A stretch of 64,000 nucleotides of DNA from Hydrogenobaculum sp. 3684 (GTDB lineage Bacteria > Aquificota > Aquificia > Aquificales > Aquificaceae), in the NCBI RefSeq assembly GCF_000213785.1, contig NC_015557.1, forward strand, positions 434,001-498,000. The letters are read 5' to 3'. This document shows positions 34,440 to 38,108 of the stretch, in pieces. The stretch's first letter is position 1; each line of letters begins with the position of its first letter. The position numbers were made by a program, and so were the translations under genes. The notes below the pieces were generated by a model, which ran no database searches, was not told the origin of the DNA, and saw only the letters and a list, made by a program, of their open reading frames with translations.

Positions 34440-34497
34440 ATATTATACCAGGCACTTGAAAATGTCTATTTGTCATATATATTTTTAGGAGGTGTCT

Positions 34498-35229
34498 ATG
34501 GTTTACTTGGCTATTGTTTTGATGGGCGCATTGCCTTATTATATACTTTTTAAAAGCCCAAAACCAAGAAATGCACTTATTATATTTTCTATATCAGCTA
34601 TTGGATTTTTAATATACACACTATTCCCTTACTTACCAAAAAGCTCTTACAATATAATACTTGAAGCAGCGGCTTTTGCTACATCTTTACTGACATTTTA
34701 TCTGTCTTATAAAACCACAAATCTTACAAGGTTAAGTTATTATTTTTTATTTCTAAACGCAGTCTCGGTGTTTGTGCTACCAAGTCATATTTTTAACGTG
34801 TATTACTTATCCGTTTTAGGAAGTGCGTTCTTACTCTATACGATATCCATAAAGTACATAGAGATATTTGAAAGTGCAAATTTTTACAATGTAAAGGGCC
34901 TTGCCTTAAAATCTCCAAAGTTGGCTCTTATGTTAAGATTAACGCTTATGGCTTTGGGACTTTATCCACCTTTTTCAAACTTCTTTTCGTTGTTTTTGGG
35001 TATTTTAAAAGAAAGTGCTAACACTGTAAATTATATAATATTTAGCTGGATATTCTTTGCAAACTTTTTTATGGCTTTTAGGATAATGAAAAATACCATC
35101 TTTGGAGCACCTAATGAAAACATCGTCTACAAAGATATATCTGGTAAGACTGCTATAGCTATGACATTTTTGCTTTTGGTGCTCGCTTTAGTTGGGTTTT
35201 CTAATCTTTTGGAGGCTTTAACATGGTAA
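34498..35229 (+). CDS. Short DabB-like (NuoL/MrpD-related) membrane subunit
   Basis: A 243-residue membrane protein with about eight hydrophobic helices, directly before dabA and overlapping it by 7 nt. In known DAB inorganic-carbon pumps the partner DabB is a NuoL/MrpD-type antiporter subunit of about 500 residues. Here only a reduced form is seen, with LTLMALGLYPPFSNFFSLFLGIL recalling the antiporter-family G(L/I)PPFSGFFSK segment. A 14-helix antiporter core is not present. ATG 34498 is chosen because AGGAGG (34487-34492) precedes it. The role as the ion-coupling partner of DabA is inferred from context. Confidence 0.6.
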   Translation: MVYLAIVLMGALPYYILFKSPKPRNALIIFSISAIGFLIYTLFPYLPKSSYNIILEAAAFATSLLTFYLSYKTTNLTRLSYYFLFLNAVSVFVLPSHIFNVYYLSVLGSAFLLYTISIKYIEIFESANFYNVKGLALKSPKLALMLRLTLMALGLYPPFSNFFSLFLGILKESANTVNYIIFSWIFFANFFMAFRIMKNTIFGAPNENIVYKDISGKTAIAMTFLLLVLALVGFSNLLEALTW

Positions 35230-38108
35230 AAGCTTATCTTGATAATATTAGAAAATATATACCACACTATTGGCCCATGACTACGTTTGTACATCATAAT
35301 CCTTTACACGGATTTGAAGATATGCCTTTTAAAGAAGCCTTAAAACAAGCTTCAAAACTTTATAAGGCAAAAGTTTATATGGATCCAGATTACTATGTAG
35401 AGCTCTACAAAGAAGGTATTATAAAAAGAGATATTTTAGAAAAAAATCTTTTTGAGTTTTTAAAAAGCATTGGGCTTCAGATGTATTTTGCTGAGTCCAA
35501 AAAGTTTATAACAGAAATAAGTCAAGACTGGAAATATTACAAAGTAAAATCTTCCACAACCCCAGATATAAACCTCATAGATTACTTCAATCAAAAGATA
35601 GTTAAAGACGAAGACACGCTATTTCAAGAGCTTATAGAAGATATGATGCTATCTGAAATATTAGATGCAATATTTGAAGATAACATAACAGATATCATAG
35701 AAAAAGAGATAGTGGAGTTTGTAGCAAGGTTTTTAGATGAAGGTCAGACTACAATGTCTATGCCAGAAAGACAAAAAGGCATGTTTGGAGCTTTTAAACT
35801 ATATGAAGGTTTAAATACTAGCTTAAACGAAGAAGAGTATGCAGATACCATACTACATGAGTTCTCTCCAAAAAACGTTGAAAGATATATACTAAATCAT
35901 CTTTTAAAAGATTTTGGATGGGCAGCTTTTATAAAATATAGAGAAGACAACGAGGATTATTATTTCCAGCAGATACACCCAGCATCTTTGCTTGAATATT
36001 TAGCCGTAAGGCTTCATTACGAGAAAAAATATCTAAACCGTTATCCTATATCAAATTTTGTAGAACTTCAAAAGGCTTTCGAGCAAAATAAAACGCTTTT
36101 TGTTTTGAAGCTTTTAAAAGCCAAAAACATACTTCCATCAAAATATATAGATAGATTAGAAGAAAAAGATAGCCCAAAAGCTATTTTAAGCGACTATCTC
36201 TCAGAGGAGGTGTTTTTAGAGGCTTACCGCATTCAAAACATAGCAAACGAACTTTTACTACACCTTGATAAACAAAAAGATATAACGGATTTTGCGTTTT
36301 TAATAGAAAAGTTAAAAGAAGAGGAAGGATACATATGGCTTAAATCTTTAGAAGATTCATATATAAAAGAGTACACTATAGATTTCTTGCAATCTAACGA
36401 AAAAATTCAAAGGGATATATTGGCAAGCGCCGTTTTTTGTATAGATGTAAGATCTGAGGCCATAAGAAGACATATTGAGAGGCTTGGAAACTACAACACC
36501 TACGGAGTAGCAGGCTTTTTTGGTACTCCAATAGCCTTTATAGAATTTGACAAAGGCCATGAGCAATATTTATGTCCAGCTTTGATAAAACCTCAAAAAA
36601 TAATATTTGAGCTTCCAGAAGACGAGCACCATGATTATAAGACAAAGCACAACATAAACTACACATTTAAAAAGACCTTAGAATCTCTTAAAAATAACCC
36701 CTACACACCGTTTTTTATGGTAGAAGCTATGGGATGGCTTTTTGGTGTAAACTTGTTTGGCAAAACCCTTTTTCCAGATTTTACACTAAAGATTTTATCT
36801 TTTATAAAAGCCAAAAAACCAAAAACACGTTTTACAATAGACAAACTAAGTGAAGAAGAAATAGAATTTTATGCAAAAAAGTTTTTTATACAAAAGATTC
36901 AAGAAGCTTATCATCAAGAGTTCAAAAAACACATAAACGATAAAAAAGCCAAAGATTTATTTGAAGCAATTATAAATGAAAACCACAAAGGTATAGATGA
37001 ACGTATTTTAGAGATTTTAAAAACAAAATACAACATAAACAAAGAAAGCTTTGAACTGGAAAAGATTAGACTTTCAAACGTAGGCTATACAGAAGAAGAA
37101 CAGATAAATCTTGTGGAAAACTTTTTAAAACTTATAGGACTTACAGAAAACATACCAAAGTTTGTACTTTTGATAGCTCATGGAAGCACTTCCGATAACA
37201 ATCCTTTTGAATCTGCCCTTGATTGTGGTGCTTGTGGTGGTAACAACGGACTTCCAAACGTTAGAATACTGGCAAATATAGCAAACAAAAGCCAAATAAG
37301 AAAAGGTTTAGAGAAAGTTGGTATCAAAATACCAGAAGATACAATATTTATACCAGGCATACACAACACTACCACCGACGAGATAACTTTTTACGATACA
37401 GAAGTTATACCTCAAAAAGATAGGGCGTTATTTGATAAAATAGTAAAAGATTTTAAAATAGCTTCTCAAAAAACAAGGGAAGAAAGGGCAAAAACGCTTC
37501 CCTATGCAGGTTCTGGTGATAGAATACCTGTTAGGGCTATAGACTGGTCTGAAACAAGGCCAGAGTGGGGACTTTCAAAAAATATGGGGGTTTATGTAGG
37601 AAAGCGTTCTAGCACCCAAAATATAGCTCTAAAAAATAGATTCTTTATGCAATCTTACACCTGGGAGATAGACAAAGACGACAAAATCCTCAAAAACATC
37701 CTTTCAGGGCCATTTATAATAGGTGAATGGATAAATATGGAACATTATTTTTCTACTACAGACAACGAAAGGCTTGGAGCTGGGTCTAAAGTATACCACA
37801 ACGTAGTAGCAAAAGTAGGCGTTTGGACAGGAAACTACGGTGATCTAAGGACAGGCCTTCCTTATCAAACTGTCTATCATGACGGGATACCTTACCATGA
37901 ACCCATAAGGCTTTTAACCTTTATAGAAGCACCTGCCGAAAAAGTCTTAGAAGCTGCCCAAGAGGTAAAAGAGGCTTTAAAACTAGTGGTTAACGAATGG
38001 GTAAGGCTTATAATAATAGACAAACTAAAAGGCGTAGCTTATACCTTTAAAGATGGAAACTTAGAAGTGCTTGTGGATTCTAGGGGCATAAATCAGTTTG
38101 TAATATAG
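35223..38108 (+). CDS. dabA: DabA-type inorganic-carbon pump subunit (DUF2309)
   Basis: A 961-residue cytoplasmic protein of the DUF2309/DabA family, a beta-carbonic-anhydrase-like zinc subunit that converts CO2 to bicarbonate when coupled to an ion-driven membrane partner. The proposed zinc and catalytic residues are present: C406 and D408 in FCIDVRSEAIRRHIE, and H653 and C668 in LLIAHGSTSDNNPFESALDCGACGGNNG. The H-to-C spacing of 15 equals that of the characterised Halothiobacillus enzyme. The N-terminal HYWPMTTFVHHNPLHGFED is also typical. In an rTCA-cycle autotroph this would supply bicarbonate or CO2 to the carboxylases (inference). Confidence 0.9.
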   Translation: MVKAYLDNIRKYIPHYWPMTTFVHHNPLHGFEDMPFKEALKQASKLYKAKVYMDPDYYVELYKEGIIKRDILEKNLFEFLKSIGLQMYFAESKKFITEISQDWKYYKVKSSTTPDINLIDYFNQKIVKDEDTLFQELIEDMMLSEILDAIFEDNITDIIEKEIVEFVARFLDEGQTTMSMPERQKGMFGAFKLYEGLNTSLNEEEYADTILHEFSPKNVERYILNHLLKDFGWAAFIKYREDNEDYYFQQIHPASLLEYLAVRLHYEKKYLNRYPISNFVELQKAFEQNKTLFVLKLLKAKNILPSKYIDRLEEKDSPKAILSDYLSEEVFLEAYRIQNIANELLLHLDKQKDITDFAFLIEKLKEEEGYIWLKSLEDSYIKEYTIDFLQSNEKIQRDILASAVFCIDVRSEAIRRHIERLGNYNTYGVAGFFGTPIAFIEFDKGHEQYLCPALIKPQKIIFELPEDEHHDYKTKHNINYTFKKTLESLKNNPYTPFFMVEAMGWLFGVNLFGKTLFPDFTLKILSFIKAKKPKTRFTIDKLSEEEIEFYAKKFFIQKIQEAYHQEFKKHINDKKAKDLFEAIINENHKGIDERILEILKTKYNINKESFELEKIRLSNVGYTEEEQINLVENFLKLIGLTENIPKFVLLIAHGSTSDNNPFESALDCGACGGNNGLPNVRILANIANKSQIRKGLEKVGIKIPEDTIFIPGIHNTTTDEITFYDTEVIPQKDRALFDKIVKDFKIASQKTREERAKTLPYAGSGDRIPVRAIDWSETRPEWGLSKNMGVYVGKRSSTQNIALKNRFFMQSYTWEIDKDDKILKNILSGPFIIGEWINMEHYFSTTDNERLGAGSKVYHNVVAKVGVWTGNYGDLRTGLPYQTVYHDGIPYHEPIRLLTFIEAPAEKVLEAAQEVKEALKLVVNEWVRLIIIDKLKGVAYTFKDGNLEVLVDSRGINQFVI

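What the first reader, a model, noticed from the sequence alone, without database searches (positions are those of the whole stretch)
34498..38108. Candidate inorganic-carbon pump with a half-size DabB
DabA is complete (C406, D408, H653, C668 in the expected motifs) but the overlapping upstream gene encodes only 243 residues, about eight helices, where known DAB systems use a NuoL/MrpD-type subunit of about 500 residues. It is too short for a 14-helix antiporter, yet retains a GLYPPFSNFF segment. Either energy coupling works with a minimal membrane subunit, or a second membrane protein is recruited from elsewhere. In an rTCA autotroph a compact DIC pump would be a notable variant.
Basis: partly seen in the sequence, partly recalled or inferred. 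Interest (0 to 1): 0.7.

Follow-up and report, generated by a model that had tools for sequence, protein, structure and literature searches.

The report
CO2 pump operon missing its antiporter
The short gene beside dabA is not a shrunken version of the usual proton-conducting subunit but the known third, small membrane subunit of a widespread CO2-uptake pump (DAB1 type), and the full-size subunit this copy needs is encoded half a megabase away beside a second copy of the pump.

Summary
In detail: a 243-aa membrane protein overlaps a complete 961-aa DabA, and no NuoL/MrpD-size gene lies beside them. Calling it a half-size DabB is wrong. A paralogous locus in the same genome reads full DabB (529 aa), small protein (242 aa), DabA (961 aa). 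The same order occurs in Campylobacterota, Gammaproteobacteria, Nitrosomonas, Nitrospira and other Aquificota, and in many Aquificaceae the first two are one ~760-aa protein. H. neapolitanus DAB1 is described as having just such an additional small membrane protein (Hneap_0908). The small protein matches the C-terminal half of MrpD/NuoM-type antiporters in profile and in a confident model (pLDDT 91). It lacks the half carrying the essential Glu/Lys, and the MrpD TM12 lysine is replaced, so it is unlikely to couple energy alone. The genus keeps one full DabB for one or two small+DabA units. One complete relative deleted the second small+DabA but kept DabB intact (99% identical, dN/dS 0.05). Best reading: a DAB1-type vectorial carbonic anhydrase whose DabB is supplied in trans. 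Trans assembly is inferred, not shown.

The parts
34487..34492 (+). Ribosome-binding site AGGAGG of the small-subunit gene
   Evidence: sequence
34498..35229 (+). Small membrane subunit, 243 aa (third subunit of DAB1-type DACs, Hneap_0908-like; C-terminal-half-antiporter fold)
34957..34986 (+). GLYPPFSNFF stretch (residues 154-163), the conserved PPF motif; it aligns with MrpD TM12 'GIPPLSGFF', and the lysine two residues further on in MrpD (K392) is Leu165 here in an ungapped reading
35223..38108 (+). dabA, 961 aa, cytoplasmic beta-carbonic-anhydrase-like subunit; overlaps the small-subunit gene by 7 nt
36438..36452 (+). DabA C406-I-D408-V-R410 (equivalent to DabA2 C351/D353/R355)
   Evidence: PMC13144422
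36723..36725 (+). DabA E501, equivalent to the essential finger-motif Glu444 of DabA2
   Evidence: PMC13144422
37179..37226 (+). DabA H653 ... C668, zinc ligands (equivalent to DabA2 H524/C539)
   Evidence: PMC13144422

Best explanation
The window holds the small-subunit and catalytic-subunit genes of a three-subunit (DAB1-type) DIC-accumulating complex, duplicated within the genus without the third gene. The working complex most likely is one DabB (529 aa, NuoL-like, encoded at genome 1012020-1013606, about 540 kb away), one small subunit and one DabA. By analogy with the solved DAB2 complex, protons run down the membrane potential through DabB and past the Glu in DabA's membrane 'finger' (E501 here). 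This drives one-way hydration of CO2 to bicarbonate at DabA's zinc site. The small subunit, the C-terminal half of an antiporter without its charged residues, most likely packs against DabB/DabA as a structural or gating element; in many Aquificaceae it is simply the C-terminal domain of DabB. The two small+DabA pairs share the single DabB in trans. Shown here: gene content, homology, fold, conservation of key residues, duplication history, and retention of DabB after loss of its neighbours. Inferred: physical assembly in trans, proton coupling, CO2 hydration, and the role of the small subunit.
For: The second locus in the genome is dabB(529 aa)-small(242)-dabA(961), with 62% DabA identity and 44% small-subunit identity to the window pair. 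The order DabB+small+DabA is found in Campylobacterota, Gamma- and Betaproteobacteria and Nitrospira-type genomes, and with DabB+small fused (~760 aa) in Aquificaceae. DAB1 of H. neapolitanus has an extra small membrane protein, Hneap_0908 (PMC13144422). The locus-II DabB carries the NuoL/DabB2 proton-path positions K212, H237, K287, S293, H316, H320 and K324 as invariant. DabA has all zinc ligands and E501. Complete relative G032 has one DabA (window type) and lost small+DabA of locus II, leaving a 97-bp dabA remnant, yet keeps DabB intact: 99% aa identity, dS 0.098, dN 0.0045. G030 likewise has a stand-alone DabB 82% identical. DabB is the slowest-evolving subunit: 95% identical between G000 and G033, against 70% for the small subunit and 83% for DabA. 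Trees show one DabB clade but two small and two DabA clades inside the genus. All ten other PF00361 proteins lie in two nuo-like clusters (by count and spacing of the hits) and two hydrogenase-4-like clusters (my reading of the ORF tables). Unlinking of DabA from DabB also occurs in Aquificaceae MAGs G006 and G015.
Against: No direct evidence that DabB binds the window pair. The small subunits of the two loci are only 44% identical, so interface compatibility is not certain. G030, G006 and G015 are draft assemblies. The model of a fused DabB (DabB with the small domain) failed (pLDDT 44).
Confidence: 0.8

Rival explanations
1. Minimal pump: the 243-aa protein alone serves as the membrane and energy-coupling partner of the window DabA.
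For: The pair is maintained by selection (dN/dS 0.04-0.16), is translationally overlapped and has no DabB neighbour in any of the four genomes where the context is readable.
Against: The protein is only the C-terminal half of an antiporter, without the N-half that carries the essential Glu/Lys and with the MrpD K392 position replaced. A DabB is present in 5 of 5 genomes of the genus, including one where it has no other DabA to serve.
Confidence: 0.06
2. The window pair recruits a different NuoL/MrpD-like subunit (from complex I or a hydrogenase-4-like complex) instead of DabB.
For: The genome encodes ten other PF00361 proteins.
Against: They all sit in nuo-like or hydrogenase-4-like clusters, and those detected with the DabB query are only 24-34% identical to DabB. 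The single dedicated DabB is retained as an orphan.
Confidence: 0.05
3. The window pair is a divergent paralogue with another job (for example regulation, or DIC handling not coupled to protons), not forming a DAB-type pump.
For: DabB is missing next door; a duplicate exists; the small subunit evolves fairly fast (70% identity between G000 and G033).
Against: All zinc-site residues and the coupling Glu501 are kept, DabA-I is under purifying selection (dN/dS 0.04-0.08), and in G032 it is the only DabA.
Confidence: 0.09

Closest known systems
DAB1 of Halothiobacillus neapolitanus (DabA1 Hneap_0907, small membrane protein Hneap_0908, DabB1 Hneap_0909)
   Same: Three components: NuoL-like DabB, small membrane protein, DabA (PMC13144422; a MAG titled H. 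neapolitanus shows 570+250+1052 aa in that order).
   Different: In the window unit dabB is not in the operon; one distant dabB must serve one or two small+DabA units. The letters of Hneap_0908 itself were not compared.
DAB2 of H. neapolitanus (DabA2/DabB2; PDB 9rd0, 9rd8, 9rd9)
   Same: DabA zinc site and finger glutamate; NuoL-type proton-path residues of DabB.
   Different: DAB2 has two subunits, a 551-aa DabB and no small subunit; the DabA2 chain is 870 aa.
Fused DabB of Aquificaceae (about 760 aa, with DabA of about 1000 aa)
   Same: Its residues 1-530 are DabB and its C-terminal ~220 residues are homologous to the window's small protein.
   Different: One chain instead of two; next to dabA in most genomes.
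MrpD / NuoM antiporter subunits
   Same: The small subunit matches their C-terminal half in sequence profile (7qru_D residues 260-459, E=3e-7) and in fold (TM-score about 0.7).
   Different: No N-terminal half, and the TM12 lysine is replaced by hydrophobic residues.

Membership tests
DabA (PF10070) | Profile match and zinc-site Cys/Asp/Arg/His/Cys | tested here: met
   PF10070 E=1.2e-217; C406, D408, R410, H653, C668, aligned with 9rd0_A
DabA (PF10070) | Finger-motif glutamate (Glu444 in DabA2) | tested here: met
   E501, invariant in 21 DabA sequences
DabB (PF00361, NuoL-like) | Proton_antipo_M domain and about 500 residues or more | tested here: not met
   The window small protein has no PF00361 match at E<=10 and is 243 aa; the locus-II 529-aa protein does match, E=2.5e-46
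Third subunit of DAB1-type complexes (Hneap_0908-like) | Small membrane protein encoded between dabB and dabA, or as the C-terminal domain of DabB | tested here: met
   Homologues between dabB and dabA in many genomes; fused in Aquificaceae
Third subunit of DAB1-type complexes (Hneap_0908-like) | Direct sequence similarity to Hneap_0908 itself | tested here: inconclusive
   Only a MAG titled H. neapolitanus was compared (L120, 50 bits to the Aquificota profile); the record of Hneap_0908 was not available
Three-subunit DAB1-type DAC | dabB, small gene and dabA in one operon | tested here: not met
   Window unit lacks dabB; locus II has all three
Three-subunit DAB1-type DAC | Energy-dependent CO2 uptake / rescue of a CA-deficient strain | not testable with these tools
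   Needs experiment
MrpD/NuoM-type antiporter | 14-helix protein with two half-channels and key Glu/Lys residues | tested here: not met
   Only the C-terminal half is present; MrpD K392 position replaced

The most novel reading that the evidence does not exclude
The window pair works without any full DabB: a half-antiporter plus DabA's own membrane finger form a complete proton path, making this the smallest energy-coupled carbonic anhydrase.
Probability: 0.06. Interest if true: 0.75.

Novelty: new variant of a known kind. Interest (0 to 1): 0.38.

Why it matters
It turns an apparent 'compact pump' into a clear case of subunit sharing: two catalytic units and one proton-conducting subunit per genome, with a natural knock-out of one unit in a relative. 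It also suggests what the uncharacterised third DAB1 subunit is: the C-terminal half of an MrpD/NuoM-like antiporter that has lost its charged residues and is fused to DabB in Aquificaceae. That gives a testable idea for how DAB1 differs from the solved DAB2.

Tried and rejected
1. Pfam and NCBIfam on the small protein alone: no family above cut-off; only a weak HyfF hit, E=1e-6; phmmer against the PDB found nothing. The profile of 21 sequences was needed. 2. The idea that the small protein is a truncated or frameshifted DabB: rejected by the intact paralogue and the homologues aligned. 3. The idea that it is the C-terminal half of a split canonical DabB: rejected, because the 529-aa protein is already a DabB2-size protein (551 aa in 9rd0_B) and the small part matches MrpD's C-half rather than DabB2. 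4. AlphaFold of fused DabB from four sequences: unusable, pLDDT 44, so the small-subunit/DabB interface could not be modelled. 7. Literature: nothing on Hydrogenobaculum and this transporter, and one paper naming Hneap_0908; the open-access library only.

Full report
OBSERVATION. The finding's coordinates and residues hold. The small gene is 34498-35229 (+), 243 aa, with AGGAGG five bases before its ATG. dabA is 35223-38108 (+), 961 aa, overlapping by 7 nt. DabA matches PF10070 over its whole length, E=1.2e-217, and carries C406, D408, R410, H653 and C668. No PF00361 protein lies in the window. The genes on both sides lie on the other strand (hemB- and folK-like by reading), so the unit is a two-gene operon.

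THE SECOND LOCUS. The genome (one contig, 1,552,775 bases) has a second dabA at 1008498-1011263. There the order is a 529-aa NuoL-like protein (PF00361 E=2.5e-46), a 242-aa membrane protein and a 961-aa DabA. The DabAs are 62% identical and the small proteins 44%. So the small protein is normally an addition to a full DabB, not a replacement for it.

DISTRIBUTION. In 136 Aquificota genomes, 52 have DabA. In the second family (Hydrogenothermaceae by record titles) the order is DabB ~535 + small 187-246 + DabA ~960; in most Aquificaceae the first two are one ~760-aa protein whose residues after ~540 are the small protein. Among 80 loci from named genomes the same three-part order occurs in Sulfurovum, Sulfuricurvum, Sulfurimonas, Thioalkalivibrio, Acidithiobacillus, Thiobacillus, Nitrosomonas, Nitrospira and others; in Nitrospira-type genomes the small part lies inside a ~435-aa protein. 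PMC13144422 states that H. [quoted passage not shown] The window protein belongs with that third subunit; the letters of Hneap_0908 itself were not compared.

WHAT THE SMALL SUBUNIT IS. A profile of 21 homologues hits the C-terminal half of MrpD (7qru_D 260-459, E=3e-7). Several members hit NuoM/MrpD models in NCBIfam. AlphaFold gives a confident eight-helix model (pLDDT 91.1, pTM 0.89), and its best PDB matches are MrpD, NuoM and NuoL chains, TM-score about 0.7 over ~220 columns. The GLYPPFSNFFSLF stretch aligns with MrpD GIPPLSGFFSKF; the lysine there (K392, my count) is Leu165 in the window, and across the 39 aligned sequences the only charged position conserved inside a helix body is Arg/Lys195, near a helix end. 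That this lysine is functionally important in MrpD, and that the missing N-half carries the key Glu and Lys, is recalled knowledge. A half antiporter without these residues is unlikely to form a proton path alone.

WHERE THE PROTON-CONDUCTING SUBUNIT IS. DabB of locus II has the NuoL/DabB2 proton-path positions invariant among 18 homologues (residue list from PMC13144422, transferred via the NuoL alignment by my own counting). DabA of the window keeps E501, the equivalent of the essential finger Glu444. The other ten PF00361 proteins of the genome lie in two nuo-like clusters (inferred from number and spacing of hits) and two hydrogenase-4-like clusters (my reading). Hence the only free DabB is the one 540 kb away.

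NATURAL EXPERIMENT. Genome G032 (one contig, 1,559,514 bases) has one DabA, of the window type, and one small subunit. Its locus II has lost small+dabA: DNA is collinear on both sides of the gap, with a 97-bp remnant of dabA left. The 529-aa DabB is intact, 99.2% identical, dS 0.098, dN 0.0045. The timing of the deletion is unknown, so this dN/dS covers time before and after it. G030 (draft) also has DabB standing alone, 82% identical. DabB is the most conserved of the subunits, as expected if it serves both units. Trees put the two small and two DabA clades inside the genus with a single DabB clade, so the small+DabA pair was duplicated without DabB. DabA is also unlinked from DabB in the drafts G006 and G015, so unlinking is not unique.

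MECHANISM. By analogy with the solved PMF-driven carbonic anhydrase DAB2 (PMC13144422): protons through DabB and the DabA finger drive one-way CO2 hydration. This is inferred for the window; no activity was tested. The role of the small subunit is unknown; packing or gating is my guess.

NAMING. The genus is taken to be Hydrogenobaculum because 1,559,514 bp is, from memory, the size of strain Y04AAS1; no tool named it.

VERDICT. Real observation, wrong label. A DAB1-type pump unit with its DabB supplied in trans is a new variant in gene arrangement; the identification of the third subunit as half an antiporter is the more useful by-product.

Noticed in passing
L085:9422-9600: Deletion of small+dabA of locus II in G032, with a 97-bp dabA remnant (L085:9496-9592 against L014:8208-8304): a natural half-knockout.
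   Followed up: yes
L050:1-4523: Draft G030 carries a further three-gene DAB related to Hydrogenothermaceae G077/G097/G100 (its DabB is 54% identical to locus II), with a shortened 189-aa small subunit; possible transfer between families, or contamination of the MAG.
   Followed up: partly
L109:2108-9060: Nitrosomonas eutropha Nm 57 has two DabA frames of 1046 aa in tandem behind one DabB and one small subunit: another case of more DabA than DabB.
   Followed up: no
L060:6253-7556 and L061:6721-8031: About 1.3 kb separates the small subunit from dabA in these two genomes; the intervening sequence was not examined.
   Followed up: no
L133-L165 (Nitrospira-type loci): The small subunit has a ~190-aa N-terminal extension (about 435 aa in all), and two loci (L157, L165) have two DabB genes in a row.
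   Followed up: no
G000:C1:672000-687000: Two nearby sets of three PF00361 proteins (NuoL/M/N-like), i.e. apparently two complex I clusters side by side.
   Followed up: no
DabA tree: DabA of the window's genus groups with Hydrogenothermaceae/Campylobacterota DabA, not with those of its own family, which suggests horizontal acquisition.
   Followed up: partly
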